NCBI GenBank assembly: GCA_026214975.1
Contig: CM047810.1
Coordinates: forward strand, 96,054,316 to 96,118,315
Source: Gentiana macrophylla
Taxonomy: Eukaryota > Streptophyta > Magnoliopsida > Gentianales > Gentianaceae
DNA length: 64,000 bases
Direction of reading: 5' to 3'
The position numbers and the translations under genes are program-made. Positions 480 through 64,000 of the stretch are shown here, one piece after another. Within the stretch, counting starts at the first letter, position 1; the number at the start of each line of letters is the position of its first letter. The notes beneath the pieces were generated by a model. That model worked only from the letters and a program-made list of their open reading frames with translations. It was not told where the DNA came from and ran no database searches.

Positions 480-517
480 AAAGACGTAAAACAAAGGCGC
501 TTGGGGGGAGGCAACCC
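480..517 (+). other. Conserved GCGCTT...GGGAGGCAACCC block of Athila-type elements
   Basis: The stretch reads AAACAAAGGCGCTT followed by GGGGGGAGGCAACCCC, in which GGGG and CCCC can pair around AGGCAA. From memory, a very similar block (GCGCTT, TTGGGAGGCAACCC) recurs in plant Athila-type elements downstream of the coding region. It supports the family assignment; its role is not known to me. Confidence 0.5.
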
Positions 518-869
518 CGCCTTAATAAAATTGTGTGAAATAATAATAATAATAGTAATTTGGATACGACTAGTATTAATGAAATGTAGAATCTGTATGA
601 AATATAAACACAAATCACAACCAAGTCTCAGGATGAATGTTTGAATGTCATTAAAAGGAAACGATTAGGTGGTTATCCGAAAATCCCGAGGGAGTACAAA
701 GAAAACATTAAAATACATCATTTCTTGGACTTAGGTTATTGAACCTCGAGGATCTGGGTATAAAAGACTCAATACTCTTTCACACATTTCATTTTATAAT
801 CTAGTCTATTTCAAATTTCTGTCGTTGTAGTATAGTGGTGAGTATTCCCACCTTAATAAAACTGTGTGT
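515..869 (+). repeat. Direct repeat pair CCCRCCTTAATAAAAYTGTGTG
   Basis: Two copies of a 22-bp sequence lie at about 515-537 and 847-869, differing at two positions. The left copy directly follows the GGCAACC block. The right copy directly follows a tRNA-Asp-like sequence and shares the CCC-CCT with it. Confidence 0.7.
821..853 (+). other. 5' half of tRNA-Asp embedded in the element
   Basis: Positions 821-853 begin GTCGTTGTAGTATAGTGGTG and run on to TATTCCCACCT. From memory, plant tRNA-Asp(GUC) starts GTCGTTGTAGTATAGTGGT(A/G)AGTATTCCCGCCT, so about 31 of 33 positions agree, including the D-arm and internal promoter A box. Similarity stops at the anticodon region, and no B box (GGTTCGANNCC) follows, so this is neither a working tRNA gene nor a normal tRNA-derived SINE head. 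The related Athila-type LTR at 57831 is followed by a primer-binding site complementary to tRNA-Asp. Confidence 0.7.
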
Positions 870-2162: not shown

Positions 2163-2193
2163 CGAGGACGACCAAAAGCTAAGTGGGGGGTTG
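2163..2193 (+). other. Polypurine tract and conserved CGAGGACGA motif before the 3' LTR
   Basis: CGAGGACGACCAAAAGCTAA is followed by GTGGGGGGT and then the LTR start. The purine-rich tract is the expected primer for plus-strand DNA synthesis. A matching AGGACGATCAAAGAGCTAAG lies just before the LTR at 57831, supporting common lineage. Confidence 0.7.
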
Positions 2194-4787: not shown

Positions 4788-5481
4788 TTCTCAAACTCTC
4801 TTCGTAAAACAAATACAACGTAAATTTTTTTAGAGCCATAATAACTTATATTTATCCCTGATATTTTAATATTTAATAGTTTATATTGTTGTTGCTTCGA
4901 TGTCATTTTATCTTTTCACGCCGTAACAAAATCTTCAATTACTTTCCTTAGGTGATTAAGATTGAGTGGCTTGGTCGTTGTGGATGATAAGGCTTGGTCG
5001 TTGTGTGTTTTATATATTATTTCATTGGGACAACTTATGATTCATGTTGATGATCGGGATCGAGTTTATTACTTATGTACAAGATATATCATTTTCGCTT
5101 TCTTTCATTCTCGCCATCGATTGCAATAAAACATACATTTATGAGTTTAGATGTTTTTTATTCCACGATGCATTGATCGTTAACGGTCCGTGCAATGCAT
5201 GCACGGGTTATTGACTAGTATTATTATATAGATATAGATTGTCCTACCATTAGAATGATGCGCATAAATTAGGAAACCATTTTTGTTTCCAGTAATATTA
5301 TTTTCTCTTAATAATTAGCAAACCACTTTGTCCCAATAATAGCATTAACTTCCATTAAAAATAATAAATCAATTAAACAAAAGTGCAATTAACAATAGTG
5401 ATCTACGTGTAACAAGTTGCCAAATGATTCTAGGGTATTACACATTTGTCATGCACACAAAGAGAGAGCTTAATATGCATT
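4788..5481. other. AT-rich stretch without a gene
   Basis: No coding potential seen. At about 5265-5330 it contains, in reverse orientation, the same repeat that is found in tandem at 22395-22560. The rest shows no structure I can name. Confidence 0.5.
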
Positions 5482-5489
5482 GTCATGCC

Positions 5490-5992
5490 CAAGGACGGAG
5501 CCATGATTCTGTATTCGGGTGGGCTTGATTTCTTTATAGTGTTATATTATGGAGAATTTTTTTTAGACGTTTAAAATGTAACAATAGAATTCACTCGATA
5601 CTCCTAATATATATATTCTACTCGAGTGTGATAAAATTATTTATACAGTTGTTTTACGGTGCAATTTTTTCTTAAGTTCATAAATTACAACAAAAAATTC
5701 ATTTGATACTTAATATGTGTATTCAGATGAGACGTGTTAATAAAACCGAGTAGTGCCGAGTAAAATTTAAAGGTGGGTTGGACTGGTTAAAATATTAAAC
5801 ATAAATTTAGGTGTGTTTTATTGGCATCACCAAATAGCTTCTAACAATACGATTAAATAAATTTTAATGTAATTAAGAATTTAATTGTGTCAATAGAATG
5901 CATTAAAAATTAATATAAACCTCTGTATAAGTAAAAAGAGAGTGGACTAGGTGGGCTTAGCCACCCCCAGCCACTATACAGCTACATCCTTG
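5490..5992. mobile_element. Non-autonomous hAT-type element, 503 bp
   Basis: Left end CAAGGACGGAGCC and right end GCTACATCCTTG form imperfect terminal inverted repeats (CAAGGAYGKAGC). The 8-bp sequence GTCATGCC is directly repeated on both sides (5482-5489 and 5993-6000), the duplication length made by hAT transposases. GGGTGGGCTTGA inside the left end and GGTGGGCTTAGCC near the right end are in direct orientation. No transposase is encoded. Confidence 0.75.
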
Positions 5993-6442
5993 GTCATGCC
6001 CACAATGTAAGAGCATAATGTGCATTGTCATGCCCACAAGGAAAGAGCTTATCATGTTTGCCAAGACCACATAAAATAAATAATGAAAGAATGTTAACCG
6101 ACCTGCTATATAGTTCGACCCGCGGGTGGGCACCCAAATACCAGCCCAACATCCGCATGAATTAAATTGACCCCAGGCGTGGGGGGCGTCATTGTTGAAG
6201 ATTCTCAATAACTCATAGCGAAATAGAGATATGTCAATACCTAATTAACCAACACTAATCTGACATTCGTAATGCATATGGTCATATTTTGCATCTAAAT
6301 TTACTACCGGACATAAATCAAAACAAGGTAATAATTAATATATTGTAAAAAAAATACTGACTAGAACTTACAAGATAGCATACTGTGCAATGTGTACTGG
6401 AGAGACAATCTGTTGGAATAAAATCGAAAATTGAAACTCACG

Positions 6443-6491
6443 TTGCGGAGTGATTGGTTGCCGCCGCAGCCTGGGCGACGATTCCCATTCT
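6443..6491 (-). CDS. Possible short first coding exon (low support)
   Basis: On the minus strand an ATG in purine-rich context opens MGIVAQAAAATNHSAT and runs into GTGAGT, a good splice donor, inside an island of higher GC than its surroundings. Upstream in the same frame the reading is open for another 20 residues, so this could be an internal part of a longer exon. I found no convincing next exon downstream on the minus strand, where the hAT-type element lies. It may be a gene relic or chance. Confidence 0.2.
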
Positions 6492-47997: not shown

Positions 47998-49446
47998 ATG
48001 GTTAGCCGTCGCGGCATCGAGGCAAACCCAGAAAAGATACAAGCTCTCCTCGATATGAAAGAGCCCACAACGATCAAGGAAGTTCAAAGGCTAAATGGCC
48101 GCATTATCGCACTTGGTCGCTTCATAGCAAAGTCAGCTGAAAAGTGTCTTCCCTTCTTTAAAATTCTGAAAGGAAACAAGACATTTTCGTGGGGCGTGGA
48201 ATGTTCGCAAGCTTTTCAAGCCCTGAAAGAGTATCTGGGCAAGCCACCTCTCTTAGTCAGCCCGGCGGTAGGGGATGTGTTATTTTTGTATCTAGCGGCT
48301 TCAGATTGGGCTGTCGCCGCCGTTCTTGTAAAAGAGGCTGGAACCCTCCAAAATCCCGTATTTTATGTAAGTAAAGCTCTCAGTCCGGTAGAGAGCCGCT
48401 ATTTTAACATTGAAAAATTAGCTTACTCTCTTGTTATTGCTGCCCGCAAACTCAGGGGCTACTTCACATCCCATACAATAATTGTTTTAACAGACAGTCC
48501 GATACGACAAATTTTGCACAAGCCGGACCTTTCAGGTCGCCTCCTCAGATGGGCAATCGAAATTACCGAATTTGATATCCAATATCAGCCTAGGAAGGCA
48601 ATCAAGGGGCAAACCTTGCCAGACTTCATCGTAGAAACAAGTTTTAACTCGCCACGACCAAACTCGCCTATGACAATCGGACCCGCAGAGGTCAAAAACA
48701 GACCAGAGCAATGTTGGCTGTTGTACGTCGACGGAGCATCGAGTCGGAATGGTTGTGGAGCAGGAGTCATCTTAATGGAGCCAGGCACTACAGAGGAGAT
48801 CGAAAAGGCTTTAAGGTTTGAGTTTGCCGCCACGAATAATCAGGCCGAGTATGAAGCAGTCATAGCGGGGCTCAAACTTGCAAAGGAGTTAAACGTGGAG
48901 AATGTGGAGGTTTATTGTGACTCTCAGCTTATCGTCAAACAAATCTCGGGGGATTATGACACGCATTGTGATATTCTCGAAAAATACGGCAAAGTTGTCC
49001 AAAAGCTAGCAACGGGTTTTCAATATTGCGAATTTATCAGAATCAAAAGAGAGGACAATGAGCGAGCAGACTACTTATCAAAACTCTCTTTGGAGGAGGA
49101 GCTCGCGGATCCTTCCATCATGATCGAATATTTAGCAACGCCCGCAATCGAAGCAGCGGAAATTATGAATATAGATACATCACCTGTGGTCGCATGTTGG
49201 ATAGATGAGATACAAGCATACATCGAAACGGGCATTTTGCCCGATGAGGCGGACAAATCACGCACCCTCAGAAGAAGAGCTGCGAGGTATGTCATCATTA
49301 GCGGAGTTCTTTATAGAAGGTCGGCTACAAAGCCCTTTACGGTGTGTTCGACAAGAGGAAAGCTCGGCGATTCTAAACGAAGCTTCACCAAGGTGTGTCG
49401 CGGAGGACATCCAAAGAAGCCGCGCTCTCGGCACAAAAAGTTTTAA
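47998..49446 (+). CDS. Element B RT end, RNase H and second RNase H (482 residues open)
   Basis: This is the longest intact coding stretch in the window. Residues 1-60 are the RT thumb (GIEANPEKIQALLDM, GRIIALGRFI). Residues 60-215 are the usual gypsy RNase H, with FLYLAASDWAVAAVLV and RYFNIEKLAYSLVIAARKL, ending in QTLPDFIVE. Residues 238-365 form a second, archaeal-type RNase H: LYVDGASSRNGCGAGVI, FEFAATNNQAEYEAVIAGL, VYCDSQLIVKQI and REDNERADYLSKL, with the four acidic residues present. The dual RNase H is a mark of the Tat group. The end (DEADKSRTLRRRAARYVI) enters the integrase N-terminus, then shifts frame. Confidence 0.85.
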   Translation: MVSRRGIEANPEKIQALLDMKEPTTIKEVQRLNGRIIALGRFIAKSAEKCLPFFKILKGNKTFSWGVECSQAFQALKEYLGKPPLLVSPAVGDVLFLYLAASDWAVAAVLVKEAGTLQNPVFYVSKALSPVESRYFNIEKLAYSLVIAARKLRGYFTSHTIIVLTDSPIRQILHKPDLSGRLLRWAIEITEFDIQYQPRKAIKGQTLPDFIVETSFNSPRPNSPMTIGPAEVKNRPEQCWLLYVDGASSRNGCGAGVILMEPGTTEEIEKALRFEFAATNNQAEYEAVIAGLKLAKELNVENVEVYCDSQLIVKQISGDYDTHCDILEKYGKVVQKLATGFQYCEFIRIKREDNERADYLSKLSLEEELADPSIMIEYLATPAIEAAEIMNIDTSPVVACWIDEIQAYIETGILPDEADKSRTLRRRAARYVIISGVLYRRSATKPFTVCSTRGKLGDSKRSFTKVCRGGHPKKPRSRHKKF

Positions 49447-55974: not shown

Positions 55975-57091
55975 GAGCATACATTGATTGGGGAGTTTTG
56001 ATGTTTAAAACTGCAATTAATTTTGCAGTAGAGAGACGTAATAGGGGAAGACCTTTACCGTTTGCCTGGGTTATTTCTCATCTTTGTGTCCAACTGAATC
56101 ACGTGCCTGAGTTTACTACTGACGAGATTTTTCCATCTCGTGATTCTCAGTTAGGATTACTTCCGGTGGATACTCCCGGATGTTCATCTACGGTTTGATA
56201 ATCAGTTAGAAGTTTATGTTTTTATGTGATAGTCGTTTAAGTTGATCGTTTAATCGTTTTTTTTAGTTTGTAATAGTTTCCTTAATGTTTAATATATATG
56301 TCATTTACTTTAATCAAAATAATATATGTTTGTTAAAAAAAAAAAAATCAAAATCATGTAAAATTTTAATTTTATTTTCGAACTACTTTTATTTACTCAC
56401 TTTGAACATCGGACGATGCCATTTTAAATAAGTGGGGAGTAGAGGTAAGTTAGTAAATACAAATTAAAATTTTCTTATATAAAGTTATACTTAATTGCTT
56501 AATACTTAGTTTAATTTGTCTTGGATTAAAATAACTAGATAATATATAATTAATATGAATAAAAATAGTATAATTTGGTAAGAATAGATTTTAATTAAGT
56601 AAAGTAAATTTGATATATTATAATTATATTATATATGTCAATTTTAGATTTTTATAAGATTTTAAGTATATGTAACTATACATAAATATTATCAAGTAAA
56701 TTTCATATGAAATTTAACGGAAATACTTATATTTATAATGAATTTTTTAGAATAATTTTCTTTGCAAAACGAAATATGAATATGGAATCGGATTAGGAAT
56801 GATGAGATTTTTGACACCACAAAAATTACCTCAGCCTTGATTAGAGTGATTAATACCTCACTCGAAATAGCCATTTTTGATTATAACCGACCCTTGGTTT
56901 ATTTTGGTTTACATTTCCTAAAAATCCCACGAGTTTGTACGTACTTATGAAAGGAGATGATGGAACAGAAGCTAAGAATGGTGTATGCTGAGGAAAAAAA
57001 AAAAAAAAAGAGATATATATAAGAACGAAGCACCATATTTACACAGAATTAATCGAATACCAGGTATCTTCCTTATCTTTGATCGACAAAT
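55975..57091. other. AT-rich stretch with one short reading frame
   Basis: A plus-strand frame (55983-56198) reads WGVLMFKTAINFAVE, GRPLPFAWVISHLCVQLNHV and ends at a stop. It looks like part of a real protein, perhaps of the retroelement whose tail follows, but I cannot name it. The rest (56200-57090) is AT-rich with poly-A runs. Confidence 0.4.
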
Positions 57092-57830
57092 ACAAAAATC
57101 GGTAGCAGCTTCCAATGATTTGAGTGCAGTAGGGTGTTATCTAGAAACGTCCTATATCACTATGAGGTATAAAGCTCCCGATAAAAATTCGAATCAAGAA
57201 TGATTACGAGTTTAAGGAAACCGGACTCGTAATTTTAGATCGAAAGAGTATTACTCCGATCAATCTTGATGAAGCAATGCTTGTAAATTTGATTTTTCTA
57301 CACACACTCACGCTTTTAGTTCTTAATATTGAAAAAGAAGAGAGAAAATCTGAAAAATAGTTGGAATAAGAAGATATTATTAATCGAGATTGTTTTTGAT
57401 CAAACGTGAAGGTGTAAAGTACGTACGACTTGCCTCTTTCTCTTTTTGATTTCCTTTTCTATCTTTTCGATTAACCAATGTCCCATCCTAAAAAGTATAA
57501 GCCATTTTGTCAATTACTTGACTTAGTCTTTGATTCCAAATATTTCATACAAGTTGAGATAGGAAAATAATTCTAGAATTTTAATTATATTTATTGAGTA
57601 GATTTTGTGAAATTTCATTTGAATAATAGTTGATAAATAATTTATCAAAGTTATCTACACTTTTATCTTGTTAATTTACGAGAAAGATATAATTAATATG
57701 GTTATAATATTGAAATGATATTTTACTAATTTAAAATATAATCTACCACGTATATTATTTTTATCGTCATTTTTATATATATTACCGCTTATTTTGCTTT
57801 AGGACGATCAAAGAGCTAAGTGGGAGTAGT
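57092..57830 (+). mobile_element. 3' internal tail of an Athila-like element
   Basis: 57092-57183 matches 1634-1715 (GGTAGCAGCTTCCAATGATTTGAGTG, then the stem-loop, then TATGAGG...AAAGCTCCCGAT). The right end has TAGGACGATCAAAGAGCTAA followed by GTGGGAGTAGT, the polypurine tract of the next LTR. No coding sequence. Confidence 0.65.
57123..57161 (+). other. Third copy of the Athila stem-loop
   Basis: AGTG (57123-57126) pairs with CACT (57158-57161). TAGGGTGTT (57130-57138) pairs with AACGTCCTA (57146-57154), with two G-U pairs, around the loop ATCTAGA. All nine inner positions can pair despite changes relative to the copies near 1665 and 1741. Confidence 0.65.
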
Positions 57831-58368
57831 TGATGTATAACATTTATATGATAAAAATTACGATGTTTTATATACATTATCGACTCTTTTATATAAAATA
57901 TAAGTAATTATAACGATAATCTTATAAAATATTAATAGTTATGAATAAATCTAAATACTATAAAAATCAAGTAAAAATGATAAAAGTTATAAATTTTGTA
58001 CCGGGTTAATAACCGGAGTATCGTGTCGATTCACGTGGGTATTTTTGGTATTTTATTTACGAGATCTTAGGTAAACCAAGACCCCGAGTGGCGACACTTT
58101 TTTGAATAAAATCATATCTTTTGAAGGAATTAAGGAAGTGCCACGAGTTTTAAAGTTCAAGTGGATCAATGGTTCGTGACACCGTATCAAGTTATATTTT
58201 CAACGAACAAATGGCCCATCAAAAGGCATTTTCTGAAGAAAAGTCCTTCATGGAAGTTGTAGATCTTCTCAAGAGCTTTCCAACGCATCTTGAATTATGT
58301 CATTTGGAGATCCAGAGCTCAAGTTATGATTTTATCAAGTTTCGGATCAAGTTTGAAAAAAAATCTAT

Positions 58369-58502
58369 CCGGATCGATCCGGATTTACCTCGGATCGATC
58401 CGAGGAAACATCATGATTTAACCAAATGTGGCCCTGCAGAGAATATCCTGGGATAATATTTTTTATTCCCGGATCGATCCGGCCCTTTCTCGGATCGATC
58501 CG
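58369..58502 (+). promoter_or_regulatory. Four copies of the CGGATCGATCCG palindrome
   Basis: CCGGATCGATCCGG at 58369-58382 and 58469-58482; CCTCGGATCGATCCGAGG, an 18-bp perfect palindrome, at 58388-58405; CGGATCGATCCG at 58491-58502. The last lies 18 bp upstream of the TATA box. Confidence 0.75.
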
Positions 58503-58519
58503 GCTTGGGAAAAACTGCC

Positions 58520-58527
58520 TATAAATA
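58520..58527 (+). promoter_or_regulatory. TATA box of the Athila-type LTR
   Basis: TATAAATA within CCTATAAATAGAGC. Confidence 0.65.
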
Positions 58528-59789
58528 GAGCAGCATTGCAGGCACATAGAGGGTGCCAAATATATTTTCTTCACCCTTTTTATTAGTAGTAGTAGGTATG
58601 TATATAGGCCTTATGCCATAAATAAAGTAGTATCGTTATAATGCTCGAGAAATTATCAGAAAATCAATGTTGTTGAAGTCGTTGTAGCATCCGGAAGAAT
58701 ACAGCTTCTGATTCAATTGTTGTAATCGGGTAAAATTTCTAAAGTATTTATGTTTGTTATGTTTGTTTTTATTTTCGTATAATGTTAGTAGGCTAAATCT
58801 AATAACTAGCCAAAGTTATGTAATCGTTTTATTTCGATCTTTTCGGTAAAGGAATGTTGTCTAAGTAAAATTGACTAAAATTGAGTTAATTGAATCTTTT
58901 TCTATTGATAAAGTTTGATTCGAAAGAATTCATAATCTAATTATGAATTGACGCTCAGTAGTTAGGTTATGAACTCGTTAATAGAAAAACCGGAGGGTAA
59001 AATTGGCCGAGTGAATAACGTGACAACGGAACCCAGTTTCCTACCCGGGGGCAGATTTGTCCTAAAAAGATGAATCTTATTGAAATTTGTACTCGAGATC
59101 GTAATAATGTTAAATCATCAGTTTAATTGAAACTTAAACCGGAAAGTTGAATCGCCCGGCCTTGACAACCGGAGCCTTTAAATAAAATTGACCGTTTGAC
59201 GAACGGAATGACTCCTTTTATTCAAAGGTAGAATCGTACTTTCGGGACCTGTTCGTAAAACCGTAATGATTGGATCTTGGGTGATGACAATGGACATATG
59301 ACAATTTAAATGCGCTTATGTGAAGAGGAATTGTTAACCTCGGGGAGTGCACCGTTTCATTTACTCAATTGAACCTAATATAAAAGATCGAGCACATTCC
59401 ATTCAATTGAAAAGATCGTATAAATCAATTATATAAACTTTGGCTAGTTCTCTAAATAATATATTTGGTATCTGTATATTTATATCTATATATATATTCT
59501 GCAACATATGCATATCTATATATATTTATATATCTATACCTATTATATTAGAATAAATTTTAAATTATGCATTTATTTTATGTTAAGTAAAATAGTAGTG
59601 ATCTCGTGTTATAAAGCTGAGATTTAGATCGAGTTAATAATGACTCTTTGGTGTTTAACCACACTTAGAAGAATTACTAAGTTCCTCGAGGATACGATAC
59701 TCGACTCACCATACTAGCACTACGCTTTGACCCGATACACTATCGGTTAAGGACTCGGTATTAGCACTAGAAAAGGCCACGTCGACTTT

Positions 59790-59806
59790 ACGGCGCCGTT
59801 GCCGGG
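59790..59806 (+). other. Primer-binding site, tRNA-Asp type
   Basis: CGGCGCCGTTGCCGGG after the LTR. It matches, except for its first base (T expected), the complement of the plant tRNA-Asp 3' end (...CCCGGCAACGGCGCCA). Confidence 0.75.
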
Positions 59807-60359
59807 AACGACGCTAACTTCTTTTTGTGTCTATGGTTACTACTTGTATTAGCTCAAAATTCTCGAGAATAAGTCAACACTTTTCTTATCTCATTTCTAT
59901 TTTTATTTTAAATTGGTACTTACCTTATAGGTAAGTTACCATTTTACTACTATTAATTTCGTGTTATTTTCTATTTTCGTTAGTTGATGACCGTAGTGGT
60001 AAGGCCCCACTCACTCCTTATAAGCCTGACATAAACACTTACGAAAGGCGCTAAGAGTAGAGAAAAACGTGGTCATACTAGTCGTGAAATCCTGACGAAT
60101 CATCTTCAAACAAATACGAGAATGGTCAAAATCGGTGATGAAACACCGAACAAGTTTGGAACATGCTCTAGGGCATGGACAAAACCCTGTTAACCTTAAT
60201 AATCAAAATAATAATAATAATAGAAATAATCAAAATCGGAACCGAATAATCGTAACAACCCAAGTAAACCAAGGCCTATCTCAGTGACCAAACTATAAGA
60301 AGAAATCGGACTAATAATCTCATACTTTTACCTATTGAAGGAGCGAAATAATTTCGAGA
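59807..60359 (+). other. Leader and degenerate gag start
   Basis: No frame longer than about 50 residues. AATAATAATAATAATAG and AAATCGGAACCG-like stretches around 60200-60270 may derive from the Asn-rich gag N-terminus. Confidence 0.4.
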
Positions 60360-62290
60360 TTAAATCTCATCTTTTTTGGTTTAATTGACGCAAGAGCCCA
60401 ATTCTAGGAGAAGATGATGAAGATCCGCATCATCATCTCTATCTTTTGAAGAATCGTGCAATCTGACCAAAAAGTCAAGGTGCTCACAAAGGAATTAACA
60501 AGGATGACTATGTTTCCTTTTTCTCTAAAAGGACGAGCCCGAGATTGGTTTATGTCTCTTCCACATCATTCACTTACAAGTTGGGAGGAGATTCAAACTG
60601 AATTTAAAACAATATTTCACTCTGGACGGAATTTGGAATTAAAAGTCGAGGTTGCTAACTTTAGACAATGATCTCAAGAAACGCTGGGAATGCCTGGGAA
60701 AGATTTAAAAATTGTTAAGAGCTTGTCCCGACCATGGTTATTCCTTAGATATGCAAATTCAACTTTTTGTCGTAAATTAAGAAAAGATTCACGTCTTTGA
60801 TGTAGATCATGCATGTGGTGGTTCTTTAATGATGAGTGAAGCTCAATTAGTTTACGATGCTATAGAAAAGATTTCCAAAAATAACGAGAATGTGGGAAAC
60901 CGGTTCTAGCACCGGAAAAGTAGCTTTGCGAGAGAATGTACGCCTAATACGGAAGTTCTACCACATTTAGAAAATTTAAGTAGGAAATTTGATGACCTAC
61001 AATCGAGCAAAACCAAAGTTCGTAAAATAGTACGCCAACCGAATACTCAATTCAGATAAAATGCCACTAGGGATCGAAGAACCAACAGGATACTCAAGAG
61101 AGGAGGTGAGTTTTCTTCAAAGAAAGATAGGAATTTAAACAATGCTTACTCAAACTCGTTTAATGCTATTAGAAGAGATCACCCTACTTATCGATGGTCC
61201 GAAAACCCTAGTAAGCAAGGACAACCGCCGTATCCAGCTCCATACAGAACATGAATAATAATCAAGTTTATCAAGAAAACACGCCTAATCGAAATTTACA
61301 ATCATTACCTAGATCCTATCCTCAACATACCACTCAAAGTATACCAAGAACTCAAAGTTCAACTCGGCTGCAGAAGGAGTTGAAAAATGGGAAAAACTAA
61401 TGGAAAATATGATGGGTGTAGTATCTACTCAAGCTAAAAATATAGAAACGATGGTGACTTCTATTGGTACAGTCCACTAAGGACATGAGTTCAATGAAAA
61501 CATCTATGGGTGGACATGATACCAGGATGAGAACGATAGAAGCCTCATTAAGGAATATGGAAGATCATTTGAGTAGGGAAGGTGAACGTAATAACAAAGA
61601 GACTTCCCAGGAGGATTACCAAGTAACACCGAAAGGAACCCAAGAGAGGTAAATGTTGTAGTTACGAGAAGTAGGAAGCTCAATGGAAGTAATGGAGTTG
61701 AAAACTTTGGGAATAATGAAGTAGAAGATGACTTAGATGGTAAGAATGATAAAACTAAAGATGAACTTGAATTTACTGAGATGAGGAAGAAGAAATTATA
61801 GAAAATTTCTTGAAAAGAAATAAAAGTTCGAACCCGAAAGTGAAAGGGAAAATTGGGTAAAAATCCTAGGATTCTGAAAGATCCCATGGATAAAGATTTA
61901 AGGACTTTATTTAAGGAACATGTTAGAATGGAAGATAATGAAAACAAGGATGAAAACAGGAAGAATCAAGGAATCTAAAGTAGAGATTGATTCAGGGAAC
62001 AATTTAAAAGAAAATTCAAGAACTCAAACATGGCAACCGAGTAATACTCAAGGTTTAAGGAAAAAGGAAAAGAGAAACTCGACAAAGGAGCCACAGGTCA
62101 TAGATTTAGAATCTTTACCTTACCCTCCTAAAGATCAAATCAAAAAGGCAAAACTCGATAAGAAGTATGCTCATTTCCTTGACACTTTTCGTCATATTCA
62201 AGTTAATATCCTCATTATTGAAGCTCGATTAATATACTGCCTATGGAAAATTTCTCTCGAAAGAAATTCACAAACAAGAAAAATTAGAGG
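60360..62290 (+). pseudogene. Athila-type gag, degenerate
   Basis: LTRMTMFPFSLKGRARDWFM and SWEEIQTEFKTIF (60490-60620) are the conserved gag core. A long low-complexity part follows with fragments such as NMEDHLSREGERNN. Near the end come VIDLESLPYPPKDQIKKAKL and KKYAHFLDTFRHIQVNI, the block that precedes the Athila protease. Many stops and shifts. Gag would form the particle; this one cannot. Confidence 0.75.
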
Positions 62291-62700
62291 AATATGAGAA
62301 TATATGCCTGAATGAAGAATGTTCTGCAATTTTGCAGCATAAGTTACCACCTAAACTGAAAGATCCTGGAAGTTTTACGATTCCATGTGAAATTGGAGGA
62401 TTTCTGTTTAAGAAGGTCTTATGTGATCTAGGAGCTAGTATAAATCTCATGTCTTATGAGGATTATAAAAAGCTAGGCATAGGAAAGCTTATTAAGATCG
62501 AAATGACTCTGCAAATGGCGATAGATCGATTAAGTACCCTAAAGGAATTATTAAGGACGTATCGGTTAAAGTAGACAAATTCTATTTTCCAGTAGACTTT
62601 GTAGTTATGGAAATGGAAGATGGATATTCAGCGCCTCTTATTCTAGGTCGTCCATTTCTAGCTACAGGAAGAACTTTAATCGATGTTCAGAAAGGAGAAT
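62291..62700 (+). pseudogene. Athila-type protease
   Basis: LPPKLKDPGSFTIPCEIGGF is the Athila hallmark. The active site reads ALCDLGASINLM in related elements and VLCDLGASINLM here, with DLG in place of DTG. A frame break near 62560 separates it from APLILGRPFLATGRTLIDV (62640), the C-terminal block. Confidence 0.8.
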
Positions 62701-64000
62701 TAATTTTGAGAGTCAATGAAGATGAAGTTGCTTTCAATATTTTCAAAGCTATGAATCATCCATCATCAAAATCGTGTTCTTTTATAGAAGATATTCATTC
62801 TGTCTACGATAATCAGTCACCAACTTTTGAAGACAGATTAGAAGAATGCTTGACTCTGTCTATCTATAAAGAAGATGAGGAAGACATTGAAATGAAAGAG
62901 ATAATTCTTTCTTTAGATACAGAAAGTTTTACCTTTAAGCCACCATGGCATAAGTATTTGGAGTTAGAACTAGAAGGACCAATTCTTAAATCGTCAATAG
63001 AAGATCCGCCAAAGAACCTGGAATTGAAACCGTTACCTTTAAATCTGAAATATGCTTTTCTTGAAACTGATAATCTATTACCGATTATTATTTCATCGCT
63101 TTTAATCGAGCAACAAGAAGATCAATCGCTTAGAATGTTGAAAAAGCATAAGAAAGCTTTTGGATGGACAATTGCCGATATTCAAGGTATTAGCCACGAG
63201 ATTTGCGTTCATAAGATAATTACGAAGGAAGATGCTAAGCCTTGTATTCAACCGCAACGCCGCCTCAACCCAAATTTGCGCTTAATTGTTAAGAAAGAGG
63301 TCATTAAGCTATTAGAAATGGGAATAATTTTCCCATATCGAGATAGTGAATGGGGTAAGTCCAACTCAAGTGGTACCAAAGAAAGGAGGTTTCACAAAGG
63401 AAAGAGAATGATAGGAATGAATGGATTCCAACAAGAGAAATTACAAAGTTATCGAATGTGCATTGATTTTAGGAAATGAATGATCATACTAAGAAAGATC
63501 ATCATCCACTTCCATTCATAGTTCAAATGTTGGAACGCTTAAGTGGTCATAAATATTATCGTTTCTTAGATGGTTATTCAGGTTATTTACTGATTTTCAT
63601 TGCAAAGCAGGAGATAGGAAAAGACTACTTTCACTTATCCTTATGGAACTTTTGCGTATAAAAGAATGCCGCTTTGGTTTATGTAATGCTCTGCTCGCTT
63701 TCAAAGATGTATGATGGCTATATTTTCCGATATGGTTGAGAAATTCTTAGAAATTTTTATGGACGACTTTAGTGTTTACGGAGATTCTTTTGGTAAATGT
63801 TTGTCGCACTTAGAAAAAGTGTTACAACGATGTGAGGATACCAATTTAGTTTTAAATTGGGAAAAATGTCATATAATGGTATCAGAAGGAATTGTCCTAG
63901 GCCATAGAATCTCTCGAAATAGGAATTGAAGTTGATAAAGCCAAGGTGGAAGTGATTGAAAAATTACCACCACCAGTTAATCTAAGGACTCTAAGAGGAT
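62701..64000 (+). pseudogene. Athila-type reverse transcriptase, cut by the window end
   Basis: A linker (ERLEECLTLSIYKEDEE-like) leads to KKHKKAFGWTIADIQGISHE and CIQPQRRLNPNLRLIVKKEV, the start of RT (about 63240). SYRMCIDFRK is followed by a stop, then KYYRFLDGYSGYLLIFI (first catalytic Asp) and, after another shift, EIFMDDFSVYGDSFGKCL with the FMDD active site. The element continues beyond the window. Confidence 0.8.

What the first reader, a model, noticed from the sequence alone, without database searches (positions are those of the whole stretch)
821..853. 5' half of tRNA-Asp fused into an Athila-type element at a short shared sequence
Seen: GTCGTTGTAGTATAGTGGTG and the following bases match, by recall, the first 33 nt of plant tRNA-Asp(GUC) with two differences. 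Seen: the match ends at CCC-CCT, and the sequence after it (TTAATAAAACTGTGTG) is a second copy of element sequence from 521-537, where it is also preceded by CCCGCCT. Inference: a template switch during reverse transcription from tRNA-Asp to the element RNA at the shared CCCGCCT, in a lineage primed by tRNA-Asp. Normally only the 3' end of the primer tRNA is copied, so a 5' half would be an unusual product.
Basis: partly seen in the sequence, partly recalled or inferred. Interest (0 to 1): 0.8.

Follow-up and report, generated by a model that had tools for sequence, protein, structure and literature searches.

The report
tRNA-Asp half inside a plant retrotransposon
An old plant retrotransposon copy contains the first half of a transfer RNA gene at the end of a roughly 310-base insert; it looks like a repair or copying scar rather than a working part, and the host genome is needed to say which.

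Summary
Bases 821-852 match a published plant tRNA-Asp 5' end at 30 of 32 positions; the next best place in the window scores 19, and 20 shuffled windows reach at most 20. The right-hand junction shares CCCGCCT (tRNA nt 27-33) with the element, and a 22-nt stretch is repeated at 516-537 and 847-868 (20 of 22 identical). A related element in the window has a tRNA-Asp primer site (59792). But the repeats bound a 309-nt insert (538-846), and its other 283 nt have no convincing relative in the element or window, as a switch within Athila RNA would require. Just upstream of the tRNA start the sequence resembles a plant tRNA gene promoter (TATAAT near -26, CAA at -9), a pairing seen at about 1% of window positions. 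My leading reading: genomic DNA with the 5' flank and first half of a tRNA-Asp gene was copied into an existing element during break repair, using 7-nt microhomology (0.40). A LINE-type event using a tRNA half is close behind (0.30). The host genome could not be searched (17 unanswered requests, last), so source and copy number stay open.

The parts
497..517 (+). Motif GCGCTT...GGGAGGCAACCC just 5' of the left repeat; suggests that the left copy is at the native position
   Evidence: The same motif occurs in L019, whose contig piece carries plant-type transposon proteins; the DNA alignment there scores 32, equal to the best of 100 shuffles, so it is weak. That the motif is typical of Athila is recalled.
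516..537 (+). Left copy of the 22-nt direct repeat; begins with CCCGCCT = tRNA-Asp nt 27-33
538..820 (+). Insert body of unknown origin; begins with an (AAT)n tract
   Evidence: no convincing relative in the window; (538-846, six frames): longest stop-free run 44 codons
795..800 (+). TATAAT, 26-21 nt upstream of tRNA nt 1
812..814 (+). CAA, 9-7 nt upstream of tRNA nt 1
   Evidence: plant tRNA gene statistics in PMC11700998 (passages)
821..853 (+). 5' half of tRNA-Asp, nt 1-33, sense to the element
847..868 (+). Right copy of the 22-nt direct repeat; its first 7 nt belong both to the tRNA half and to the repeat
2181..2190 (+). Polypurine tract of the host element, followed by the 3' LTR from about 2192
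   Evidence: LTR relative at 57987-58342
59792..59809 (+). Primer binding site complementary to the 3' end of tRNA-Asp, in a second, related element of the window

Best explanation
The tRNA half is the right-hand end of one 309-nt insert (538-846) that entered an existing Athila-type copy and is bounded by a 22-nt direct repeat. Most likely the insert was copied from a genomic locus holding the 5' flank and first ~33 nt of a tRNA-Asp gene, as filler in break repair. Synthesis left the element after GTGTG (537), copied the flank and the half-gene, reached CCCGCCT, annealed back to the element's own CCCGCCT and resumed, so repeating the 22 nt. Shown: tRNA identity, the repeat, the shared heptamer, the promoter-like flank, the lack of a convincing relative in the window. 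Inferred: the donor locus, DNA as template, a staggered break.
For: Repeat and heptamer. Upstream of nt 1: TATA in -36..-20 plus CAA in -10..-1; joint background 1.3% and 1.2% of window positions (two strands) and 1.0% in 1-2190; with AT>=0.7 over 50 nt 0.6-1.0%; AT 0.78 in -50..-1 versus 0.60 in -100..-51. Plant tRNA genes: CAA within 10 nt in 36-45%, a TATA motif within 50 nt in 22-32%, AT-richness limited to 50 nt (PMC11700998, passages). Precedent: six tobacco break-repair inserts of 127-677 bp, one partly matching a tRNA-Ile gene (which its authors thought might be SINE-derived), 2-7 bp microhomology at five of six assessable junctions (PMC3289645, passages); rice insertions of 10-1000 bp with partial tandem duplications and ectopic donors (review PMC7407515, passages).
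Against: The donor locus was not seen. The promoter motifs were chosen after looking at the sequence. AT-richness is not confined to the flank: 538-587 is 0.82. A captured gene could have been cut anywhere, yet the match ends at the anticodon loop, where tRNA halves end. A simple-repeat tract abuts the left repeat, as retrotransposition tails do. All six tobacco inserts came with deletions; none is visible here.
Confidence: 0.4

Rival explanations
1. Non-LTR (LINE-type) insertion: a nicked target strand ending in GGCGGG annealed to the 3' end (CCCGCCU) of a tRNA-Asp 5' half and primed its copying to nt 1, while the other nick primed a second RNA (538-820, read on the minus strand), as in twin priming. 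The 22-nt repeat is the target site duplication.
For: Human tRNA/LINE-1 chimeras (n = 21) carry mostly half-length tRNAs (region 1-37 nt), mostly antisense to LINE-1, with 9-19 bp duplications in all eight checked cases (PMC13174262, passages). Here: complete 5' end, end at nt 33, direct repeats, heptamer complementarity, simple-repeat tract at the other edge.
Against: No poly(A)/poly(T) at the left edge; read on the minus strand the tail is (ATT)n TTT. No TTTT/AA-like nick site for that orientation (by eye). The partner RNA is not identified. The tRNA-gene-like flank would be chance (about 1%).
Confidence: 0.3
2. One reading: during Athila reverse transcription the enzyme switched at CCCGCCT from element RNA to packaged tRNA-Asp, copied nt 33 to 1 and switched back.
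For: tRNA-Asp primer site in a related element of the window; shared heptamer. One scoring of 538-820 against the second element's 3' region exceeds all 200 shuffles by a point (37 versus 36, AT-rich letters), and another is reached by only 7 of 300.
Against: 538-820 is not convincingly found after the right anchor (17 of 200; 10 of 300 and 54 of 300). A third scoring against the second element gives 288 of 300 shuffles as good. The promoter-like flank is unexplained.
Confidence: 0.12
3. 538-868, tRNA half included, is an old family feature, for instance a captured promoter spread with the element.
For: Not excluded: no other copy covering this region could be read. The second element of the window starts at about 55979, downstream of the motif, and gives no test.
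Against: A plant-type stretch in L019 carries the neighbouring motif but no tRNA half (first 23 nt, 0 matches at up to 3 mismatches); one distant comparison only.
Confidence: 0.12

Closest known systems
Break-repair (filler) insertions in plants, e.g. tobacco NTI1, partly matching a tRNA-Ile gene (PMC3289645, passages)
   Same: Insert size class, tRNA gene material, microhomology of up to 7 bp
   Different: Here inside a retrotransposon, with a 22-nt direct repeat and no visible deletion; donor unknown. NTI1 may itself be SINE-derived according to its authors
Human tRNA/LINE-1 chimeric insertions (PMC13174262, passages)
   Same: tRNA 5' half ending near the anticodon loop, flanking direct repeats
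   Different: No LINE partner recognised, no poly(A), plant host
Half-tRNA priming (1/2tRNA-Met and 1/2tRNA-Ile sites in some Ty1/copia lineages, PMC6317226, passages)
   Same: A tRNA half is involved
   Different: A primer site is complementary to the tRNA and sits next to the 5' LTR; this copy is sense and lies 1.3 kb before the 3' LTR, in an element judged Ty3/gypsy

Membership tests
Plant tRNA-Asp, 5' half | Sequence identity to nt 1-32 | tested here: met
   30 of 32; best of 20 shuffled windows 20
Plant tRNA-Asp, 5' half | Acceptor strand pairs with the tRNA-Asp 3' strand | tested here: met
   7 of 7 with the 3' strand implied by the primer site at 59792
Athila (host element) | Own primer site for tRNA-Asp | not testable with these tools
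   The element's 5' end lies outside the window; a related element in the window has the site
Athila (host element) | Polypurine tract and LTR related to a tRNA-Asp-primed element | tested here: met
   (LTR 72% over 348 columns)
Athila (host element) | Recognisable Pol or env-like protein in the part seen | tested here: not met
   ORF 3-458: no Pfam match, none of 399 candidates at E<=0.001. Pol would lie upstream of the window, so the lineage rests on the LTR relation
Break-repair insert from a tRNA gene | Microhomology at a junction | tested here: met
   CCCGCCT
Break-repair insert from a tRNA gene | Donor locus with the same flank and a full tRNA gene | not testable with these tools
   Genome search unanswered 17 times (last)
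tRNA/LINE chimera | Target site duplication | tested here: met
   22-nt repeat, 20 of 22
tRNA/LINE chimera | Poly(A)-tailed LINE partner | tested here: not met
   Outer edge is (AAT)n, no A or T run; partner unidentified, could be sought only in the window and fetched loci
tRNA-derived SINE | tRNA head with A and B boxes at the 5' end of the repeat | tested here: not met
   Match stops at nt 33, so no T arm/B box in register, and the half lies at the right-hand end of the insert
Half-tRNA primer site | Complementary to tRNA, next to the 5' LTR | tested here: not met
   Sense copy, 1.3 kb upstream of the 3' LTR

The most novel reading that the evidence does not exclude
A tRNA-Asp 5' half RNA served as a reverse-transcription template at a nicked chromosomal site, its CCCGCCU end annealed to the target: a plant counterpart of mammalian tRNA-half/LINE chimeras, or, more strikingly, Athila copying the half of its own primer.
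Probability: 0.3. Interest if true: 0.55.

Novelty: new member of a known kind. Interest (0 to 1): 0.3.

Why it matters
tRNA halves are abundant in plant cells (recalled), but whether they are copied into plant genomes is hard to see. This junction shows what to look for: tRNA matches that end at the anticodon loop and are bounded by direct repeats. A census would separate captured tRNA genes (with promoter flank) from copied tRNA halves (without it). As a single scar in an old element it is of modest interest.

Tried and rejected
Tandem duplication of element sequence as the origin of 538-820: no convincing alignment to 869-2190 (best case 10 of 300 shuffles). LTR origin of 538-820: 75 of 200 and 146 of 200 shuffles score as well against the two LTRs; 700-820 against 59250-59450 gives 139 of 300 and 92 of 300. 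Matches of 538-820 to 901-64000 are AAT repeats (plus strand 39, above all 20 shuffles; minus strand 37, reached by 2 of 20). Hairpin at the switch site: z -0.63, not special. Coding content: none seen. Rfam hits at E 0.66-9.8 are taken as chance. Relatives elsewhere: tRNA-like patterns gave 0 hits in viral contigs and genome contigs; the protein of 62607-63479 gave no confirmed locus in viral contigs; the motif gave 7 loci in viral contigs and 12 in genome contigs, of which only L019 looked plant-like (by eye; supported by a tnp2-type transposase and a Ty3-type gag). ORF 3-458 had no protein relative. Searches listed (12, 15 of 21, 2, 12 of 17 papers) no title or abstract start that reports a tRNA half inside an Athila element; of these only PMC3289645 and PMC13174262 were opened, as passages. 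The okra 'miR6300 precursor' also leaves tRNA-Asp at nt 32, but it comes from adaptor-ligated small-RNA library reads, so ligation is a simple explanation.

Full report
Setting. The window is angiosperm DNA: a gypsy-type ORF (47998-49446) has 1072 protein relatives among 7997 scored candidates, and every organism named in the 120 listed rows is a flowering plant. The finding lies in the 3' part of an LTR element on the plus strand: polypurine tract AAGTGGGGGG at 2181-2190, LTR from about 2192. That LTR is related (72% over 348 columns) to the LTR of a second element (57831 to about 59790), which is followed by a primer site GGCGCCGTTGCCGGGAAC at 59792 complementary to tRNA-Asp and by a retroelement ORF (62607-63479; 560 protein relatives among 1074 candidates; no Pfam match). 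The first element's own 5' end is outside the window. The Athila label rests on the LTR relation, the tRNA-Asp primer site and recalled features; ORF 3-458 gave no Pfam or protein relative.

Observation. Bases 821-852 match the published plant tRNA-Asp 5' stretch at 30 of 32 positions; the next best place in the window, both strands, has 19, and 20 shuffled windows have 19-20. The comparison sequence is from PMC5831935 (passage); PMC6521008 prints the same first 18 nt as its tRNA-Asp forward primer (passage). Without any recalled tRNA, GTCGTTG (821-827) pairs 7 of 7 with the acceptor 3' strand implied by the primer site at 59792. The match ends at nt 33, just before the anticodon (numbering recalled). 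The words CCCGCCT at 516-522 and CCCACCT at 847-853 start a 22-nt repeat, identical at 20 of 22 positions; local alignment extends to 38 columns (score 40; best of 200 shuffles 27), the outer part being AT-rich. The two differences are G/A in a CpG and C/T in a CTG, as decay of methylated cytosine would give (inference).

Reading the junctions. The left repeat follows the motif GCGCTT..GGGAGGCAACCC (497-517). The motif also occurs in L019, filed as Candidatus Burkholderia humilis, whose stretch carries a tnp2-type transposase and a Ty3-type gag, so probably host plant DNA; the DNA alignment around the motif is weak by score (32, equal to the best of 100 shuffles). This suggests that the left copy sits at the native place and that 538-846 (309 nt) was inserted between two copies of the anchor. 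It does not convincingly: 17 of 200 shuffles, and 10 of 300 or 54 of 300 under other scorings, match or beat the observed score. Against the second element's 3' region one scoring gave 37 against a shuffle maximum of 36, others were reached by 288 of 300 and 7 of 300 shuffles; the aligned letters are AT-rich, and I read this as no relation, but two of the three numbers lean the other way. The second element begins at about 55979 in an open frame that I took by eye for the end of an env-like ORF (no Pfam match); it does not reach back to the place of the insert and is no test.

What the insert may be. Just upstream of tRNA nt 1 stand TATAAT (795-800) and CAA (812-814), and AT content is 0.78 in the last 50 nt against 0.60 in the 50 before and 0.64-0.68 further up, though 0.82 in the (AAT)n-bearing 538-587. 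Plant tRNA genes have CAA within 10 nt in 36-45% and a TATA motif within 50 nt in 22-32%, and are AT-rich only over the last 50 nt (PMC11700998, passages). TATA at -36..-20 together with CAA at -10..-1 occurs at 1.0-1.3% of positions here. Taking the published rates as independent, the odds favour a tRNA gene flank by roughly 7 to 12, with the caveats that I chose the motifs after reading the sequence and that my TATA rule is not theirs. This suggests a captured tRNA gene 5' part rather than mature tRNA. Comparable captures are known: six tobacco break-repair inserts include one partly matching a tRNA-Ile gene (possibly SINE-derived, its authors say), with 2-7 bp microhomology at five of six assessable junctions (PMC3289645, passages).

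The strongest rival. In human genomes 21 tRNA/LINE-1 chimeras were catalogued; most hold a half tRNA (region nt 1-37), mostly antisense to LINE-1, with duplications of 9-19 bp in all eight checked (PMC13174262, passages). The present anatomy (complete 5' end, end at nt 33, direct repeats, heptamer complementarity, simple-repeat tract at the other edge) fits that geometry. Against it: no poly(A), no nick consensus for that orientation by eye, no recognised partner.

Limits. The host genome could not be searched: seventeen genome-search requests did not complete (first, last). Copy counts, the donor locus and the age of the event are therefore open. L019 was the only outside plant-like DNA found, and the first 23 nt of the tRNA have no match in it at up to 3 mismatches.

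Verdict. A real tRNA-Asp half at a real microhomology junction, most likely a one-off insertion scar in an old element. Modest interest; the source question would be decided by one search of 538-820 in the host genome.

Noticed in passing
55979-64000: An LTR (57831 to about 59790) has a polypurine tract and 3'-region-like sequence on its left and a primer site with retroelement coding sequence on its right: an internal-LTR-internal arrangement, as unequal recombination between copies would leave.
   Followed up: partly
1241-1255 and 56430-56444: Both elements carry a second polypurine-like word (AAGTGGGGGGTAGAG / AAGTGGGGAGTAGAG) about 0.9 and 1.4 kb before the true tract, a possible second plus-strand start.
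   Followed up: no
L019:251-6479: A contig filed under Candidatus Burkholderia humilis carries a tnp2-type transposase (251-2539), the GGGAGGCAACCC motif and a Ty3-type gag (4905-6479), probably host plant DNA in the bacterial assembly.
   Followed up: partly
protein P0142: A protein named from a Candidatus Nitrosocosmicus assembly is 40% identical over 100% of the plant retroelement ORF at 62607-63479, probably contamination.
   Followed up: no
PMC5831935 Table 2: A published okra 'miR6300 precursor' is tRNA-Asp nt 1-32 joined to other sequence; the miR6300 sequence given is the tRNA-Asp 5' end, so this is probably a tRNA fragment with ligated sequence.
   Followed up: partly
1665-1690 and 1741-1766: A 26-nt repeat (24 of 26 identical) in the 3' region; 1634-1718 matches the second element at 57099-57182 (87%), the best conserved piece of this 3' region outside the LTR.
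   Followed up: no
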